A stretch of DNA of 64,000 bases from Photobacterium pectinilyticum (GTDB taxonomy: Bacteria; Pseudomonadota; Gammaproteobacteria; Enterobacterales; Vibrionaceae): positions 1 through 64,000 of the forward strand of contig NZ_JANEYT010000014.1 of assembly GCF_024357955.1 (NCBI RefSeq), in the 5' to 3' direction. Each line of letters begins with the position of its first letter. Position 1 is the stretch's first letter. Under the pieces are notes generated by a model. That model saw only the letters and a list, made by a program, of their open reading frames with translations. It searched no databases and had not been told where the DNA came from. Positions 119-54,516 of this stretch are shown piece by piece. Both the position numbers and the translations under genes were made by a program.

Positions 119-244
119 AATGTCTCAATGCCCATAACACTGATTCTTGCGAGCAAATCCACTTTTGTTGAGCTTTATAGCGCTATTTTTAACAATCTTT
201 TGCTACGGTTAATGCAGCATTTGGAACGTTAAGGATATAACTAG

Positions 245-4253: not shown

Positions 4254-4518
4254 TATACCCAAGTTACCTCTAGGTGCAGGATTCAGAGGGTTGTCAGCGT
4301 CTTCAATCCAAGGCGAAGGTTTGCAGGAATGGCATTCCCTTTCAAAAAGCTTCAACGAAGGAGTGAATGGGCTGACACCCTACCGAAGGGCGAGTTTTCT
4401 AAGCTTCTTTACTGCGTTATTGTTTCTTGATTTAGAGCCGCTAGATCTTCAAAACAATGCCTTGTCTATAAGCTTATAAATTCTCGCTGAACCTGCATCT
4501 TGAAGTCGCTTGGGTATA
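4254..4518. repeat. 265-bp MITE-like element with imperfect terminal inverted repeats
   Basis: The left end reads TATACCCAAGTTACCTCTAG and continues GTGCAGGATTCAG; the reverse complement of the right end reads TATACCCAAGCGACTTCAAG followed by ATGCAGGTTCAG. These ~32-base ends match at most positions. The interior has no convincing gene: short frames run through it on both strands but have no ribosome site and no recognisable product. Size, terminal inverted repeats and lack of a transposase suggest a non-autonomous element. Ends of this kind recur in Vibrionaceae intergenic DNA as far as I recall. A truncated right end is seen at 20391-20416. Confidence 0.6.
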
Positions 4519-4693
4519 AAACCCATCCCACCGGACGGGATAAGCTTTCTTGTTACATCCCGCTGTAAAGTTACACCAGTAGGCTGTAGCAAAATGATAT
4601 TATTGCCTATGGCCGTTATGTATGCTTTTTCCACGACTACGCTGCAATACTGACTTAGGTGCTTTCAATTATTTTTATTAAGTTGATGTGGTT

Positions 4694-5410
4694 ATGGCAG
4701 CAATGATGTATCAGCCGACGTTCGATCCTATCGAGTCGCTGAGTGATGAGCAATTGCAGCAAGCAATTGCCGACAGGCTTAACAAACAGTTGAATAATAT
4801 GGCTGTTGCCACACAAACGGCGCAGTTCTTCATGGATTCTTTACTCAACTGGCACGCTGAATCAGTACCTGTCACACAGGTAGAGAGTATTCTTGCCTTT
4901 GCGTTTGGCAATCGTATTTCCCTTAATGGCAACCAGCATCCAGGGCCGATGAATGAAGCGATTGCTGACTCAGTGGTGTTGCTGTATCGCCAGAATGCTG
5001 TGCCGGTTTATGCCCAATGGGAAGTCGCTGAGGCAATTGGTAGCCGGATTCCTGTTCATGATCTCAATGCTATTTACCCGCGGCTTTCTGGGAAGGGCAA
5101 TACAAAGTACCTCTGTACCCAGGGAGTCGCTGAGAAGGCGGTATTAATGGCTGGAAGTGTCTCTAATTTGGGTAAAACTGCGGTGGTTGCTTTTTTTGAA
5201 CACAGCTTGCGTACAGTTGATACCGCGCGTGAGGCTGGCATTGATGCCTTTTTGCCTCAGGGCCTAGAGATGCCGCGCCAGTTTGATCCTGACTCCGGCC
5301 AGGCGTGGACGCGTGATCAGCAAACCTATGTGATGCATGAAATTCGTACCCGTGCCACCAATGAGCGAGACCGACTAATCCAAAACGCTGTTGATGACAA
5401 CTCGAAGTGA
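4694..5410 (+). CDS. conserved-looking protein of unknown function
   Basis: About 238 residues from ATG 4694 (GTG 4688 and ATG 4703 or 4706 are alternatives; no strong ribosome site decides). I do not recognise the family. No signal peptide or membrane segment is visible, so it is probably cytoplasmic. The middle (LLYRQNAVPVYAQWEVAEAI, about residues 97-116) and the following alternation of strands and helices suggest an alpha/beta fold. The C-terminus is charged and helical (RTRATNERDRLIQNAVDD). Codon use matches its neighbours. A perfect 11-bp hairpin follows the stop. Confidence 0.55.
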   Translation: MAAMMYQPTFDPIESLSDEQLQQAIADRLNKQLNNMAVATQTAQFFMDSLLNWHAESVPVTQVESILAFAFGNRISLNGNQHPGPMNEAIADSVVLLYRQNAVPVYAQWEVAEAIGSRIPVHDLNAIYPRLSGKGNTKYLCTQGVAEKAVLMAGSVSNLGKTAVVAFFEHSLRTVDTAREAGIDAFLPQGLEMPRQFDPDSGQAWTRDQQTYVMHEIRTRATNERDRLIQNAVDDNSK

Positions 5411-15594: not shown

Positions 15595-16581
15595 ATGGGT
15601 ACTTGTGCTTTGATTTGTGGTTATAGGCAACGATTAAGTATAAAAGGCGGGGTAAGTGTCGTGGGGTCTTCAGCAGGATTAGTTTCCAGAAAGTGTGTCG
15701 AAAAAGGCGAAGAACTCTGTCATCTCTATGGCTTAGTAACGGAATCTGGAATTGTTGAGTTGGATGTGCCGGGGATCCGGCTATTTCGGATAAATCAGTA
15801 CCATAAGATGACGCCCCAAATGTACCAGCAAGGCGTGGTGGTGATTTTACAGGGTAATAAAGTGGGTCATCTTAATGATTACCGATTTGATTATGACTCA
15901 AACCATTGCCTGATTGTAGCAACACCTTATCCCATTGCCTGTGAGACGTTTGCCTCGCCGGAGGCACCGTTAATTGGATTGGATATAGATTTTGATCTGA
16001 CCATTATCCAAGAACTTGTCGATACTCTTGAGCATCACCAACATAGCGAGATACCAAAATCACAAGATAACGGTCGTGGGGTGGCGGTGACTCAAATTAC
16101 ACCTGATATTAGAGGTTGTATTTGCCGTCTTCTGGGGTGCCTGAAAGATCCGTTGGATGCTCGCGTGTTAGGCAAGCAGTTACTGCGTGAGTTTTATTTC
16201 CACTTGCTCAAAAGTGATCAAGGGCATTTGTTGGCGCAATACTGTAAACAAGATAGTGCACTATCACGGGTGACAAAGGTGATATCTCACGTACAGTCAC
16301 ATTACGATGAAAAGTTGGCAATCAATGATCTGGCAGACATGGCAGGTATGAGCGTGTCTGCCTTTCATCGAGCCTTCAAACAAGTTGTTACGGATCCGCC
16401 TTTGCAGTACATCAAAAAAATCCGTCTGAATAAGGCCAAAACCATGATGTCGCAAGATGGCATGCCGGCAAATGTCGCTGCCTTGAAGGTGGGTTACGAG
16501 AGTCCAACCCAGTTCAGCCGAGAATTCAAGCGTTACTTTGGCGTGCCACCAAGCCGGGTTTCTCATATAGGGTCATTCTAA
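15595..16581 (+). CDS. AraC-family regulator, YqhC-like
   Basis: 328 residues as drawn from ATG 15595; a GTG at 15661 is an alternative start and neither has a convincing ribosome site. The N-terminal sensing domain (AraC_N type, about 40-210) is followed by two helix-turn-helix motifs in the last 100 residues (LAINDLADMAGMSVSAFHRA, then VAALKVGYESPTQFSREF). The domain order and the divergent yqhD gene match YqhC, which activates yqhD in response to aldehydes. Regulation of yqhD is inferred from this arrangement. Confidence 0.86.
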   Translation: MGTCALICGYRQRLSIKGGVSVVGSSAGLVSRKCVEKGEELCHLYGLVTESGIVELDVPGIRLFRINQYHKMTPQMYQQGVVVILQGNKVGHLNDYRFDYDSNHCLIVATPYPIACETFASPEAPLIGLDIDFDLTIIQELVDTLEHHQHSEIPKSQDNGRGVAVTQITPDIRGCICRLLGCLKDPLDARVLGKQLLREFYFHLLKSDQGHLLAQYCKQDSALSRVTKVISHVQSHYDEKLAINDLADMAGMSVSAFHRAFKQVVTDPPLQYIKKIRLNKAKTMMSQDGMPANVAALKVGYESPTQFSREFKRYFGVPPSRVSHIGSF

Positions 16582-49665: not shown

Positions 49666-50547
49666 TTAGCGCTTATCGTTATCGAACTGTTTGATAAGCA
49701 CGGAGGTATCGGCACGCTGGTAGCCACGGGCTTGTAGTTCAGCATATTTTTGGTCAACTTGTTTGGCGATAGGAAGTTCAACCCCAAGTTTCTCCGCGGT
49801 TTCAAAGCAGATACTCAGGTCTTTACGCATCCAGTCAATGGCAAAGCCGAAGTCGAATGTATCTTCTGCCATGGTTTGAGCGCGATTTTCCAATTGCCAA
49901 GATCCTGCTGCACCGTGCTTGAGTACTTCTGTCATCTGCTCGATATCAAGCCCTGCAGATTTCGCTAATGTAATCGCTTCTGATAACCCTTGCAGAATAC
50001 CGGTAATACAAAGCTGGTTAGCCATTTTGGTCACTTGGCCGTAGCCGATCCCACCCATCAAGGTGGTGGCTTTAGCAAAACTACCCATAATAGGTTTTGC
50101 TTGTTCAAATACCTTGCTATCTCCGCCAACCATGACGGTAAGACAACCATTTACAGCGCCAGCCTCACCACCGGAAACTGGCGCATCAAGGAAGTTAAGC
50201 TGGCAATCCACGGCTTTTTCAGCAATTTCTTTAGCAACCTCTGCAGAGGCGGTGGTGTTATCAATGAGCACCGCTCCCGGTTTTGCTGATGCAAGGATGC
50301 CATCATCACCACAGTATACTTGGCGTAAATCATCATCATTACCAACGCAGGTAAAGACAAAGTCAGCCCCTTCAGCCGCCTCAGCAGGCGTTAGGGCGTA
50401 GCTGCCAGCATAAGTCTCGACCCATTTTTCTGCTTTGGCTGTGGTACGGTTGTATACGGTCACATGGTGGCCAGCATTGGCGAGGTGGCCAGCCATCGGG
50501 AAGCCCATGGTGCCCAGTCCGATAAATGCAATTTTATGTGATGTCAT
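49666..50547 (-). CDS. beta-hydroxyacid dehydrogenase (3-hydroxyisobutyrate dehydrogenase family)
   Basis: 293 residues. The NAD(P) motif IGLGTMGFPMAGHLANAG is at the N-terminus, the substrate motif DAPVSGGEAGA near 120, and the catalytic Lys in YGQVTKMANQL near 170. Members oxidise 3-hydroxyisobutyrate, tartronate semialdehyde, succinic semialdehyde or related compounds; the sequence alone does not decide between them. AGGGA precedes the ATG. It is monocistronic, and no valine catabolic genes are adjacent. Confidence 0.88.
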   Translation of the reverse strand: MTSHKIAFIGLGTMGFPMAGHLANAGHHVTVYNRTTAKAEKWVETYAGSYALTPAEAAEGADFVFTCVGNDDDLRQVYCGDDGILASAKPGAVLIDNTTASAEVAKEIAEKAVDCQLNFLDAPVSGGEAGAVNGCLTVMVGGDSKVFEQAKPIMGSFAKATTLMGGIGYGQVTKMANQLCITGILQGLSEAITLAKSAGLDIEQMTEVLKHGAAGSWQLENRAQTMAEDTFDFGFAIDWMRKDLSICFETAEKLGVELPIAKQVDQKYAELQARGYQRADTSVLIKQFDNDKR

Positions 50548-50780
50548 GATTTGCTTCCCTTAACATAAGCGCTACTGAGTAACGGTAAAAATGGATAGTG
50601 AATATGTGGTTTTTAACTATCTTGGCAATAGGTTAACACGGCCTAATGATTTGCTTCGATATATAGCACAGATGAGCTTGTCAAAAAATAACTAAAAAAA
50701 TGTAGGCAAACGCATTCTTTTCTTGTGAATCACTGGCTCGGACCCTATGATGCGGAAAGTTATTCTGTAATGGCTGTTTT

Positions 50781-51392
50781 ATGCTAGTTTCTGTGCTGAG
50801 AGTTTTGATGTTGATAGTGTGTTTGGGATTTGTATGGCCTAGCCATGCAGGCTCAGTCATGCCTGTATCAAGTGTGACAGCAGGACTACAGCATAATGTT
50901 TATAGCGGTGTCGACAGTGCTTTCACTCGTTATATGCCGATGCTCTTTTCACAACAATTGGCTCAGTCCGCTTCTTTTGATCGCTTTTTTGCTACAGCAA
51001 GCCAGAACTTACATCTTCAGGCTTCTCAAACAGAGCTCAATGCGCTGTTTAAATTGGATCAGACTGACTTCGTTGATGCGATAGACGTTCACAGCAGCTC
51101 CCAATCGAATAACAATCAACACTCCAAGCATGACCGCAGTCTTGACCTCGCTATTGTTAGTTCTAATCGTTTTGCCAGCTTGTTGCGCCATGATCCAGAA
51201 GAGGTTGAACCTGCTTATCAATTGGCGATTGAGTTGCCTATCGAACCTGTCCCGAGTTTTGCCAAGGACTACCGCGTCGATATGCAGCCAGCGCTAGATT
51301 GGGCCCTGAACACTTCCCCCCCTTCAGGCCGGATTTCCGGTTGGAAGGAATCTAACTTGCTCTATACGGTTTACCACCACCGCCTCTCATAG
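50781..51392 (+). CDS. vemP: VemP-like export-monitoring arrest peptide
   Basis: 203 residues. MLVSVLRVLMLIVCLGFVWPSHA is a signal peptide with cleavage near SHA-GS. The middle is hydrophilic and Ser/Gln/His-rich, without domains. The C-terminus reads RISGWKESNLLYTVY (about residues 184-198), resembling the arrest region of Vibrio VemP (RIxGWKETNAMY). VemP is a secreted nascent chain that stalls the ribosome until it is pulled by the Sec machinery, and so controls secDF2. Directly downstream here are secD and secF paralogs. The glutamine critical for stalling in V. alginolyticus is not obvious, and the protein is longer (159 there). Confidence 0.75.
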   Translation: MLVSVLRVLMLIVCLGFVWPSHAGSVMPVSSVTAGLQHNVYSGVDSAFTRYMPMLFSQQLAQSASFDRFFATASQNLHLQASQTELNALFKLDQTDFVDAIDVHSSSQSNNNQHSKHDRSLDLAIVSSNRFASLLRHDPEEVEPAYQLAIELPIEPVPSFAKDYRVDMQPALDWALNTSPPSGRISGWKESNLLYTVYHHRLS

Positions 51393-51642
51393 ACATAGCC
51401 TGTCATCGATCTATTCCTGCCTTGTAAAAGTAGGACTATAAAACCTTGCTTGTTATTACTTTGCTCTGAGTATTGCTTCGCTTTAGGTATTGCTACTTGT
51501 GTATTGATACTGCGCGTCTTTAGCTCATGGCTACAAAGTGTTTAACGAGTAGGGCGATTCAGACTGTTTTCAATTTGATTGAAACAGCAGTGAGTTGTGC
51601 CTCTGTCGACATGGGGGTGCAACAAAAACAGTGGTAAAAAAT
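51393..51642 (+). promoter_or_regulatory. vemP-secD2 intercistronic control region
   Basis: 250 bases with a hairpin at 51564-51587 (CTGTTTTCAA against TTGAAACAG, one bulge) and a short ORF ATGGGGGTGCAACAAAAACA at 51611-51637 that ends five bases before the secD2 ATG. The secD2 ribosome site is poor (AGTGG), which fits regulated or coupled translation. No independent promoter is clear. Confidence 0.35.
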
Positions 51643-53463
51643 ATGAGAAAGAAAGCCCCTCAACGTTTGTTGAACCATTACCCCGCTTGGAAATATGTTG
51701 TCCTTCTCGTCACCTTGGTGGTGATGATGCTCAGTGCAATCCCGACGTGGTACGGTGAAGATGCTGCCGTGCAAGTTTCTGCCAAAGGCGTGCCCGTGCC
51801 TGATGTTGTTCAACTGCAAAACACATTGAAGCAGTATGATATTGCAGTTAAGCGTATTGATCAGCAGCCAGATAGTACGTTGGTTGTGCTTGCCGACGAT
51901 TCACAGCAAACCCAAGCCCGTAAAGTTCTGTCGGAGAAAATGGGACCTAAAAGTGATTCGCAATTAACATTGGCCATGACACCTGCAGCACCTGCATGGT
52001 TGCAGGATATGGGCTTTGCGCCTATCAAGCTTGGTTTGGACCTTCGTGGCGGTGTTCAATTCTTGTTAGATGTAGATATGAATCAGGTGTATCAAGCACA
52101 GGGCGAATTGCTTCAAGATGAATTGCGTCAGGAGTTTCGCACGCAAGGCATTCGAAATACCCGAATTGAAGCAGTGGCTTCAGATACCTTGGCCGTGCGT
52201 CTACCTAATGGCGAAGCCAATGGTAAAGTTCGCCAGTTTATCCGTAATAACTACCCTCAATGGCAAGTAACCAATGATGCTGGCCATGGCGTTAAGTTGG
52301 CTCTGAGAGCGGATGAGCAAACACAGCTTCGTAACCTAACGGTTCAACAAAACTTGCAAACCATGCGTAGCCGAATTGAAGAGCTGGGGATCACCGAAGC
52401 CTTGGTGCAGCGCCAAGGTGAAAACCGGATTCGAATCGAACTGCCTGGTGTTCAAGACCCCGCGGCAGCCAAAAGTGTTATCGGTGCAACAGCCAGCTTG
52501 GCTTTCTATCCGGTTCGAGAACTGGGTAGTGGTAGCACAATGATCATCAATGATGAGGATGGACAGCCTGTACGCGTAGCGCGTAAGCCTATTTTGAGTG
52601 GTGACCATATCGTTGATGCTCGTGCCAGTTTTGGTGAGATGGGTATGGCCGAAGTGAACATCAACCTTGATAGTGCTGGCGGCAAGATTATGTCTGACTT
52701 TTCACGCCAGAACATCGGCAAGCCAATGGCCACCGCTTTTAGCGAGTACAGCCGGAACAGCGAAGGCAATGCGGTACAAGAGAACAAGATCATCAGTGTG
52801 GCGACGATCCAAAGCCAATTGGGTAATCGCTTTAGAATTACCGGCGCTGGCTCAATGCAAGATGCGCAAGAGTTGGCGCTGTTACTGCGTGCAGGTTCAC
52901 TAACAGCACCTGTGACAATTGTTGAAGAGCGCACGATTGGTCCAACACTGGGGGCAGAGAATATTCAAAATGGTTTTGCGGCATTGGCATTGGGTTTGGG
53001 TCTGACATTGATCTTTATGGCTTTGTGGTACCGACGCCTTGGCTGGGTAGCGAATGTCGCACTGGTCTCCAATATGGTGATGCTGTTTGGTCTGCTTGCT
53101 ATGATCCCTGGGGCGGTACTGACACTGCCGGGGATTGCTGGCTTGGTGTTGACTGTCGGTATGGCGGTAGATACTAACGTACTTATTTTCGAACGTATTC
53201 GCGACAAGCTAAGAGAAGGCCGTAGTTTAGCTCAAGCAATCGACCGGGGCTTTAGCAGTGCCTTCAGTACGATTTTCGATGCTAACTTTACCACCATGAT
53301 CACAGCGGTTGTTCTCTATGCAATTGGTAATGGTCCTATTCAAGGGTTCGCCTTGACATTGGGGCTGGGACTGATGACCAGTATGTTTACCGGTATTTTT
53401 GCTTCTCGCGCCATTATTAATGTGGTGTGGGGTCGTGATGCTCGTCGTGAGGTGCGAATTTAA
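51643..53463 (+). CDS. secD2: Sec translocase accessory subunit SecD (second paralog)
   Basis: 606 residues from ATG 51643. One N-terminal helix, a large periplasmic region with LGLDLRGGVQFLLDVD (about 142-157) and a C-terminal block of five helices including LPGIAGLVLTVGMAVDTNVL. SecD with SecF uses the ion gradient to pull exported proteins. There is no yajC or tgt gene nearby, so this is not the housekeeping copy. In V. alginolyticus, SecDF2 is H+-driven and induced when Na+-driven SecDF1 is limiting; here that is inferred from the VemP-like gene. Confidence 0.93.
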   Translation: MRKKAPQRLLNHYPAWKYVVLLVTLVVMMLSAIPTWYGEDAAVQVSAKGVPVPDVVQLQNTLKQYDIAVKRIDQQPDSTLVVLADDSQQTQARKVLSEKMGPKSDSQLTLAMTPAAPAWLQDMGFAPIKLGLDLRGGVQFLLDVDMNQVYQAQGELLQDELRQEFRTQGIRNTRIEAVASDTLAVRLPNGEANGKVRQFIRNNYPQWQVTNDAGHGVKLALRADEQTQLRNLTVQQNLQTMRSRIEELGITEALVQRQGENRIRIELPGVQDPAAAKSVIGATASLAFYPVRELGSGSTMIINDEDGQPVRVARKPILSGDHIVDARASFGEMGMAEVNINLDSAGGKIMSDFSRQNIGKPMATAFSEYSRNSEGNAVQENKIISVATIQSQLGNRFRITGAGSMQDAQELALLLRAGSLTAPVTIVEERTIGPTLGAENIQNGFAALALGLGLTLIFMALWYRRLGWVANVALVSNMVMLFGLLAMIPGAVLTLPGIAGLVLTVGMAVDTNVLIFERIRDKLREGRSLAQAIDRGFSSAFSTIFDANFTTMITAVVLYAIGNGPIQGFALTLGLGLMTSMFTGIFASRAIINVVWGRDARREVRI

Positions 53464-53464
53464 T

Positions 53465-54361
53465 ATGTTTATCACTATGACAAATGCAACAAAATGGCGT
53501 CACGTTACGAGTGTCATTTCTATTATTTTACTGATTGGTTCCATAGTGGCTATTTCGGTCAAAGGTTTGAACTGGGGATTAGATTTTACCGGTGGTATTG
53601 TCACTGAAGTTCAAACCAACAGTGCGTTAACTAGCCATGAAATCGATCAACTGCTGGACGATAAACTGGGTCAGGATGTCAGCGTGATTGCGGCCGGTGA
53701 GCCGGGACGCTGGGTATTACGCTATGCGATTCCACAGCACGGTGAAGCGCCGGATATTGCCGCTGCACTGCATACTATTGATTCACAAGTACAGGTGCTA
53801 AATACCAGCATTGTAGGTCCACAAGTGGGGCAGGAATTGGCAGAGCAGGGTGGATTGGCACTGTTGGTCGCTGTGCTGTGTATTCTCGGTTACCTGAGTT
53901 ACCGTTTTGAATGGCGTTTGGCGTCGGGTTCAGTCTTTGCTCTGGCGCACGACGTAATTTTTGTTCTGGGTTTCTTTGCACTGACTCAGATGGAATTCAA
54001 TTTGACGGTGCTGGCAGCTGTGATGGCTATTTTGGGTTACTCGCTGAATGACTCAATCATCATTGCAGACCGTATTCGCGAGTTGTTGATTTCGAAACCG
54101 AATCAAGTGATTGAAGATATCAACAATGAAGCGATAGCGGCGACGATTTCCCGTACGATGATCACATCCGGTACGACTTTGCTGACAGTTGGCTCTTTAT
54201 GGTTATTGGGTGGCGGTCCTCTTGAAGGGTTTGCCATCGCGATGTTTATCGGCATTCTGACGGGGACTTGGTCTTCAGTCTCTGTGGGCACAGCGCTACC
54301 TGAGTTATTTAAGCTGGATTCTTCACACTATAAGTTGCAGCCTGTTTCACAAGAGCCATAA
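53465..54361 (+). CDS. secF2: Sec translocase accessory subunit SecF (second paralog)
   Basis: 298 residues from ATG 53465, one base after the secD2 stop (TAATATG). The D1-like motif GLDFTGGIVTEV is at about residues 38-49, and the helix LAAVMAILGYSLNDSIIIAD near 190 matches SecF TM4. It forms the SecDF complex with SecD2. The operon ends with a strong terminator. Confidence 0.93.
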   Translation: MFITMTNATKWRHVTSVISIILLIGSIVAISVKGLNWGLDFTGGIVTEVQTNSALTSHEIDQLLDDKLGQDVSVIAAGEPGRWVLRYAIPQHGEAPDIAAALHTIDSQVQVLNTSIVGPQVGQELAEQGGLALLVAVLCILGYLSYRFEWRLASGSVFALAHDVIFVLGFFALTQMEFNLTVLAAVMAILGYSLNDSIIIADRIRELLISKPNQVIEDINNEAIAATISRTMITSGTTLLTVGSLWLLGGGPLEGFAIAMFIGILTGTWSSVSVGTALPELFKLDSSHYKLQPVSQEP

Positions 54362-54398
54362 GGCGGCAGCTGTATATACGGCTGCTTTATAGAGTTAA

Positions 54399-54420
54399 AA
54401 GGGCCTTCGTGCCCTTTTTT
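54399..54420 (+). terminator. terminator of secD2F2
   Basis: GGGC-CTTCGT-GCCC followed by six T, preceded by AAAA. Confidence 0.85.
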
Positions 54421-54516
54421 GTTGTCTTTTTTTCATGGCTACCCATTTAGCGTCCAACTGTGATAACGTCAAATGAATGGAGACTAGCGCCGAGAATGAA
54501 AGGAAAGAGACACAAC

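What the first reader, a model, noticed from the sequence alone, without database searches (positions are those of the whole stretch)
50781..54361. VemP-like arrest peptide in front of a second secDF pair
The exported, domain-free 203-residue protein ends in RISGWKESNLLYTVY, resembling the arrest motif of Vibrio VemP, and lies directly before secD2-secF2, the operon VemP controls in V. alginolyticus. The C-terminal segment diverges (TNAMYVAL to SNLLYTVY, no obvious stalling Gln) and the protein is ~45 residues longer, so it may be a diverged export sensor with a different arrest point.
Basis: partly seen in the sequence, partly recalled or inferred. Interest (0 to 1): 0.85.

Follow-up and report, generated by a model that had tools for sequence, protein, structure and literature searches.

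The report
Diverged VemP-family export-sensing leader peptide
A marine Photobacterium carries a short exported protein that probably jams its own ribosome when protein export slows, switching on a spare export motor; its ribosome-gripping core matches the known Vibrio sensor VemP but its last residues have been replaced, and a second leader with the same core sits before a cell-wall gene in the same genome.

Summary
ORF 50781-51392 (203 aa) has a signal-peptide-like start, ends RISGWKESNLLYTVYHHRLS, and lies 250 nt before secD2 and secF2; a yajC-secDF set is elsewhere in the genome. All 52 genomes of the genus searched carry a VemP-family leader: 45 with non-VALN ends like the window's, 7 with the Vibrio VALN end. 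Among 44 distinct non-VALN proteins, R-x3-W-K-x2-N is invariant, a Trp 10 residues upstream and an Arg 54 residues upstream (the R85-R139 spacing of VemP) are each kept in 43. VemP residues L153, N154 and Q156 are Y, H and R here. The substitute end is held as peptide (Y153 in 40 of 44). The tail codons are predicted to pair with the secD2 start region. I read it as a VemP-family monitor with an exchanged stall end, probably stalling near the same codon (R201). Stalling is untested and the RNA evidence is mixed across relatives. Unexpectedly, leaders with the same core precede other envelope genes: rodA2 in the window's own genome; dedA, chaA-dedA, yqjA or an S41 peptidase elsewhere. New variant of a known kind.

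The parts
50781..51392 (+). vemP-family leader ORF, 203 aa, ATG to TAG
   Evidence: relatives
50781..50849 (+). signal-peptide-like N-terminus MLVSVLRVLMLIVCLGFVWPSHA, cleavage expected after SHA
   Evidence: by inspection, no predictor run; start and hydrophobic core conserved; the database entry starts later (177 aa)
51147..51170 (+). LAIV-SSN-R130: counterpart of the VemP short hydrophobic segment plus Arg-85, Arg 54 residues before the core Arg
   Evidence: Arg at -54 in 43 of 44 distinct Photobacterium proteins; element known from PMC11470409 (passages)
51300..51302 (+). Trp174, 10 residues before the core Arg
   Evidence: 43 of 44 distinct Photobacterium proteins
51330..51365 (+). core R184-I-S-G-W-K-E-S-N-L-L-Y195 (VemP 139-150)
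   Evidence: the last position is Y in 35 of 44, H in 7, F in 2
51366..51386 (+). substitute tail T-V-Y-H-H-R-L (VemP 151-157); codon 51381-51383 (R201) is the counterpart of the VemP P-site residue Q156
   Evidence: stall position inferred from spacing
51359..51378 (+). stretch of tail codons predicted to pair with the secD2 start region
   Evidence: duplex -12.6 kcal/mol against synonymous-codon mean -8.2, z -2.89, p 0.01; present in the centroid fold, not in the minimum-energy fold
51630..51647 (+). secD2 ribosome-binding and start region AGTGGTAAAAAATATGAG
51643..53463 (+). secD2, 606 aa
   Evidence: NF009545, ends read
53465..54361 (+). secF2, 298 aa
   Evidence: TIGR00966, ends read

Best explanation
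The 203-residue protein is a VemP-family secretion monitor. During synthesis its N-terminus enters the Sec channel while the core RISGWKESNLLY and the tail TVYHHRL sit in the ribosome tunnel and halt elongation near codon R201. If export by the housekeeping SecDF pair is brisk, pulling releases the stall, the ribosome leaves, and the tail codons pair with the secD2 start region, keeping secD2F2 low. If export is slow, the parked ribosome covers the tail codons, the start region is freed and the spare SecD2F2 motor is made. Shown here: gene order, conservation of core, spacing and tail, and a predicted pairing in the window that synonymous recoding rarely matches. Inferred: stalling, its exact codon, release by export, and induction. 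The end next to the catalytic centre is a lineage-specific replacement of the Vibrio VALNSQ end.
For: Leader before secD on the same strand in 45 of 45 genomes of the genus with non-VALN leaders, and a VALN-type leader in the other 7 of 52. In 44 distinct proteins R-x3-W-K-x2-N is invariant (the script's own search pattern, but every one of the 45 loci met it), Trp at -10 and Arg at -54 are in 43 each, Y153 in 40. In 24 hand-picked T-x-Y tails, T151 is in 21 and Y153 in 23; about half of same-residue pairs at Y153 differ in codon, which points to the peptide. Window pairing of codons 148.7-155 with the secD2 start: z -2.89, p 0.01; start region 73% paired, 66% with the vemP end; whole stretch z -2.35, 1 of 100 shuffles as low. 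Over 86 clusters a modelled parked ribosome raises start accessibility by more than 0.2 in 13 at codon 156 and in 0 at the six positions tested from 120 to 148; 156 against upstream, Wilcoxon p 6e-4 in 26 VALN clusters and 0.026 in 60 others.
Against: No stalling was measured. L153, N154 and Q156 of VemP are not kept, nor is the Pro of the (hydrophilic)xP element. Position 156 varies in the genus (R 13, Q 11, S 10, P 5, H 3, L 2 of 44), and 150 is not always Y. The hydrophobic segment is poor in one clade (NIINTSNR-type), and a strict segment-plus-Arg pattern is absent from 29 of 29 and 8 of 8 proteins of two mostly Shewanella/Enterovibrio classes. The synonymous-codon test is weak family-wide: median z -0.24, 10 of 86 below p 0.05, z up to +2.05. 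Modelled opening in the window is modest (0.35 to 0.51) and flat from codon 144 to 158; close relatives L003 (-0.06) and L004 (+0.06) do not show it. The minimum-energy fold differs from the centroid, though both engage the secD2 start codon.
Confidence: 0.78

Rival explanations
1. It stalls, but at another place: at termination (stop codon in the A site) or over a spread of positions, so the tail acts differently from VemP.
For: The window ends at residue 158, and 176 of 180 family proteins end at 156-162 (motifs further than 25 residues from a stop were not taken). Other known leaders stall at stop codons (PMC10987492, passages). The modelled gain for the window is flat from codon 144 to 158.
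Against: The tail is partly conserved up to 157 and variable at 158-159, as expected if 156/157 were the last codons that matter; many relatives have 2-4 more variable residues.
Confidence: 0.25
2. A decayed or re-purposed exported protein that no longer stalls; occlusion of the secD2 start is ordinary coupling between neighbouring genes.
For: Key stall residues of VemP are lost; the family-wide RNA signal is weak.
Against: The tail is held as peptide with varying codons; coupling alone does not explain an invariant core and a fixed 54-residue spacing while the rest diverges.
Confidence: 0.13
3. Chance resemblance to VemP.
For: The PDB search alone is weak (E 0.2).
Against: Core, Trp and Arg spacing kept across the genus before secD; two of the three pattern hits in the own genome are leader ends.
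Confidence: 0.01

Closest known systems
VemP of Vibrio alginolyticus (PDB 5nwy; PMC5449182, PMC11470409, PMC7793623, passages read)
   Same: Upstream of secD2F2; core R-x3-W-K-x2-N-x2-Y; hydrophobic segment, three residues, Arg, 54 residues before the core Arg; end a few residues after the core; secD2 start region predicted to be occluded.
   Different: YVALNSQ replaced by YTVYHHR; no Pro-67 counterpart; Trp at -10 rather than -15; 44 residues longer (VemP length 159 recalled); a poorer Shine-Dalgarno by inspection; the predicted partner of the start region lies in the tail codons.
VemP-like cluster of PMC10987492 (339 sequences, consensus RxxxWKxxNxxY; one section and passages read)
   Same: Meets the printed motif and position criteria; localisation signal by inspection.
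   Different: Whether Photobacterium or this end is among the 339 could not be read (supplements not available); that study searched only upstream of secA, secDF and yidC.
SecM, MifM and RAPP-type arrest leaders
   Same: Would work alike: exported or inserted leader, stall, release by export, unmasking of a downstream start.
   Different: No RAPP/RAGP-type motif here; no sequence relation seen.

Membership tests
VemP-like leaders as defined in PMC10987492 | RxxxWKxxNxxY-like motif near the C-terminus | tested here: met
   R184-x3-W-K-x2-N-x2-Y195
VemP-like leaders as defined in PMC10987492 | N-terminal localisation signal | tested here: inconclusive
   Hydrophobic core and SHA-G by inspection, conserved in relatives; no predictor run
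VemP-like leaders as defined in PMC10987492 | uORF of secDF | tested here: met
   secD2 250 nt downstream
VemP in the strict sense (V. alginolyticus arrest window 138-156) | PTC-proximal residues L153, N154 and P-site Q156 | tested here: not met
   Y198, H199, R201 in the window
VemP in the strict sense (V. alginolyticus arrest window 138-156) | Short hydrophobic segment, then three residues, then Arg-85 | tested here: met
   LAIV-SSN-R130, 54 residues before R184
VemP in the strict sense (V. alginolyticus arrest window 138-156) | (hydrophilic)xP element (Q65, P67) | tested here: not met
   No Pro in the aligned stretch of the window
VemP in the strict sense (V. alginolyticus arrest window 138-156) | mRNA structure hiding the secD2 start that a stalled ribosome opens | tested here: inconclusive
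   Predicted in the window, gain only 0.16; mixed in relatives
VemP in the strict sense (V. alginolyticus arrest window 138-156) | Translation arrest, released by export | not testable with these tools
   needs PURE translation, toeprint and reporter

The most novel reading that the evidence does not exclude
The W-x9-R-x3-W-K-x2-N-x2-Y core is a portable ribosome-tunnel anchor of one bacterial order: its ribosome-proximal end is exchanged from lineage to lineage, and the leader has been moved in front of at least five kinds of envelope genes (secD2F2, rodA2, dedA or chaA-dedA, yqjA, an S41 peptidase). The window's organism would then run two such sensors, one for protein export and one for a second RodA-type cell-wall polymerase.
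Probability: 0.5. Interest if true: 0.86.

Novelty: new variant of a known kind. Interest (0 to 1): 0.64.

Why it matters
VemP stalls by folding inside the tunnel, with the catalytic centre silenced by its last helix (PMC5449182, passages). A family in which the mid-tunnel anchor is fixed and the catalytic-centre end is exchanged is a natural set of variants for asking which part decides stalling and which part decides release by force. If the leaders before rodA2, dedA, yqjA and the S41 peptidase also stall, export-coupled translational control reaches beyond the Sec machinery, and screens limited to genes next to secA, secDF and yidC would have missed it. A 2024 paper (PMC11470409, passage) calls the vemP-secD2/F2 operon specifically conserved among Vibrio species; searches show such leaders before a secD in Photobacterium, Aliivibrio, Enterovibrio, Shewanella, Moritella, Psychromonas and Motilimonas (whether each of those genomes has a second secD was not checked).

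Tried and rejected
Chance likeness: rejected. Reading the tail as decay: not favoured, on conservation. A frameshift hiding a VALN end was not tested, but 24 distinct tails agree in frame. Rfam: no match in 50000-54500 at gathering score. Universal pairing of tail codons with the start region: not supported family-wide (10 of 86), so claimed for the window only. The parked-ribosome model on 22 non-Sec leaders was mixed: gain at codon 156 of at least 0.14 in 3 of 3 S41, 3 of 10 rodA2, 0 of 5 yqjA and 0 of 4 dedA; the rodA2 leader of the window's own genome gave -0.13; the two chaA cases gave no gain. A promoter and terminator scan found no + strand terminator between vemP and secD2, and 4 promoter-like sites against 1.9 (sd 1.4) in shuffles.

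Literature: 'YqjA' + 'arrest peptide', 'DedA' + 'translation arrest' and 'DedA' + 'arrest peptide' gave 0 papers; 'RodA' + 'arrest peptide' one review; 'VemP' + 'Photobacterium' 2 papers and 'VemP' + 'Shewanella' 9; six words, at least three needed, 207 papers of which the 20 listed do not contain VemP. All of these were seen as listings with abstract starts only; none was opened. The library lacks most subscription papers, and the VemP mutational paper was not held, so 'not in print' is not claimed.

Rows dropped: I left out loci without a secD match on the same strand, with a gap under 20 or over 420 nt, or without a usable start codon, then exact duplicates (128 left), then near-duplicates by a greedy 85% rule (86 left). 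The 25 loci (24 distinct) were picked by hand as the T-x-Y type and include one from outside the 52 genomes (L065); other Photobacterium ends were left out there but are counted. Classes come from loose regular expressions (its 'TxY' class of 45 also holds L054, L126, L194 and L248; L049 fell into 'TYH').
Full report
WHAT IS THERE. The window lies in a 5.7 Mb genome whose leader is nearest to that of Photobacterium lutimaris (84%). At 50781-51392 an ORF of 203 codons starts with a signal-peptide-like segment and ends RISGWKESNLLYTVYHHRLS. It matches no Pfam or NCBIfam model. Of its 25 database relatives, those with a source name are mostly 'hypothetical protein'; the window's own entry is 177 aa, a later start that would lose the signal peptide. 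secD2 (51643-53463) and secF2 (53465-54361) follow. Another secDF set with a yajC-like ORF in front is on contig C145, SecD 47% identical.

IS IT VEMP. phmmer against PDB chains gives the VemP nascent chain as the only match, E 0.2, aligned through the hydrophobic segment, the Arg and the core. The window protein finds relatives in 54 of 99 genomes, 46 of 52 in its genus counting its own; a Photobacterium VALN-type leader finds 109 of 296 in the family. Taking both, 52 of 52 genomes of the genus carry a family member: 45 with non-VALN ends and 7 with the VALN end. In 45 of the 45 secD follows on the same strand, 159-316 nt away. A profile of ten diverse members (A2) hits 87 of 394 genomes of the order, 20 of 115 genera, in 11 families, and 2 of 274 in a class sample, both inside the order. 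In one of the 11 families (f16) the three genomes read lack the core motif. Named holders are Photobacterium, Aliivibrio, Enterovibrio, Vibrio, Shewanella, Moritella, Psychromonas, Motilimonas and Serratia sp. Ag1 (79 loci).

WHAT IS KEPT AND WHAT IS EXCHANGED. Facts on VemP come from passages of PMC5449182, PMC7793623 and PMC11470409: arrest window 138-156, P site Q156, contacts of R139, W143, K144, Y150 and N154, loss of stalling with L153A, and cis elements Q65-x-P67, L78ALF and R85. In 44 distinct non-VALN proteins of the genus, R139, W143, K144 and N147 are invariant; Trp at -10 and Arg at -54 are in 43 each (the exception is a 74% complete genome, G013); position 150 is Y in 35, H in 7, F in 2; 151 is T in 21 and S in 18; 153 is Y in 40; 156 is R 13, Q 11, S 10, P 5, H 3, L 2. 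R85 to R139 in VemP is also 54; in the VALN class as a whole a pattern-based estimate gives 48-54, mostly 52-53. The strict hydrophobic-segment pattern is absent in 19 of 45 of the loose TxY class and in all 37 proteins of two other classes, so only the Arg spacing, not the segment, is claimed genus-wide. Of 35 VALN-class proteins 21 have no Trp within 18 residues of the core. L153, N154 and Q156 are Y, H and R in the window, and Pro-67 has no counterpart. In 24 hand-picked T-x-Y tails T151 (21) and Y153 (23) are nearly fixed, 154 is Q or H in 23, 155 H in 16, 157 L in 16, and 158-159 are variable; same-residue pairs at Y153 differ in codon in 51%. So the new end is held as peptide, though less tightly at 155-157. 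Other lineages have other ends: Y-S-Q-R-L-Y-P (Aliivibrio), Y-R-F-S-Q and F-V-H-A-H (Shewanella), Y-S-H-R-Q-Y-P (Moritella), Y-R-F-I-S-Q (Enterovibrio, some Vibrio), and ...T-Y-H (Psychromonas, Serratia).

HOW IT PROBABLY WORKS. The start region of secD2 in the window is predicted 73% paired, 66% with the vemP end. The strongest duplex joins codons 148.7-155 with AGTGGTAAAAAATATGAG: -12.6 kcal/mol against -8.2 for synonymous recodings, z -2.89, p 0.01; relatives L003 and L004 have p 0.066 and 0.037. The pairing is in the centroid fold; the minimum-energy fold pairs the last vemP codons with the start codon instead. Over 86 clusters the duplex is not generally better than recodings (median z -0.24; 10 below p 0.05; Stouffer z -2.99, Wilcoxon p 0.016). 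A model that masks a ribosome footprint (-15 to +17 nt of the P codon) opens the start by more than 0.2 in 0 of 86 clusters at each tested codon from 120 to 148, 4 at 150, 5 at 152, 6 at 154, 13 at 156, 11 of 80 at 158, 6 of 56 at 160, and 1 of 86 for a mid-intergenic mask. The 156 against upstream comparison has p 6e-4 in 26 VALN clusters, where the mean gain is a 156-160 plateau, and 0.026 in 60 others, where it is highest at 156. For the window the gain is 0.16, flat from 144 to 158; L003 and L004 show -0.06 and +0.06. So for this clade the RNA evidence rests more on the pairing than on the model. Together with the fixed spacing this favours a stall close to R201. Every step that involves a live ribosome is inference.

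A WIDER FAMILY, SEEN ON THE WAY. Leaders with the same core end before other genes. (a) In the window's own genome a leader ending RLGGWKEANIQYRTIVEHQRFKP stops 82 nt before a RodA gene (TIGR02210, 385.2 bits, cut-off 336.7); two paralogs, 49% and 33% identical, are elsewhere. Of 52 genomes 34 have this rodA2 at E 1e-120; of the 30 loci read, 10 have the motif leader, all among the 12 with rodA2 at least 86% identical to the window organism's; the other 2 of the 12 have a degenerate ORF there, and in the 18 more distant ones the motif was not found. Four were not read. (b) Eight of 52 genomes hold another paralog (E 3.3e-21 or better), 8 of 8 with a DedA-type gene (VTT domain) downstream, in two of them after a ChaA-like gene; one other genome of the family has leader-chaA-dedA (L248). 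The ChaA-like and DedA-like proteins pass Pfam but fall below NCBIfam equivalog cut-offs. (d) Three genomes of two families have it before an S41 peptidase gene. These are sequence observations; the RNA model supports some and not others.

COMPARISON AND VERDICT. It meets the printed motif and position criteria for VemP-like leaders (PMC10987492, one section and passages read) and fails the strict V. alginolyticus arrest window at its ribosome-proximal end. I file it as a VemP-family leader with a new end, not as VemP in the strict sense. Interest comes from the conserved exchange of the catalytic-centre end and from the same core before non-Sec envelope genes, one of them in the same genome.

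Noticed in passing
L286, frame ending at 1418 (G000:C118, before rodA2 at 15813), the window's own genome: A second leader with the VemP core, ending RLGGWKEANIQYRTIVEHQRFKP, 82 nt before a second rodA gene; 10 of 30 Photobacterium rodA2 loci read have such a leader.
   Followed up: partly
L049, L052, L053, L260-L264; L248: VemP-core leaders before a DedA-type gene, some with a ChaA-like gene between, in 8 of 52 Photobacterium genomes and one other genome of the family.
   Followed up: partly
L138 (Serratia sp. Ag1), L177, L178, L181, L182: VemP-core leaders ending ...TYHL or similar before yqjA; in L138, L177 and L178 a stretch just after the leader's stop codon looks complementary to the yqjA start region (by eye, no test; sequences).
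   Followed up: partly
L238, L239, L240: VemP-core leaders 71-83 nt before an S41 peptidase gene in two families (in L239 the peptidase frame is in two pieces); modelled start opening at codon 156 of 0.15-0.28 in 3 of 3.
   Followed up: partly
G011 (L055), G019, G032, G036, G039, G040, G044: Seven genomes of the genus have a Vibrio-type VALN leader with a secD about 52-59% like the window's over the part held, suggesting two operon lineages in the genus.
   Followed up: no
L050, L056: secD-preceding ORFs of another family match the leader's middle part but end in GRLTHNL- or ARLTHNL-containing stretches with no core motif.
   Followed up: no
window 50781: The database entry for this protein is 177 aa, a later start that would remove the signal peptide.
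   Followed up: no
L127 (Vibrio sp. D404a) 4498-4982: Leader followed by a chaA-like gene that appears to lack its middle part.
   Followed up: no
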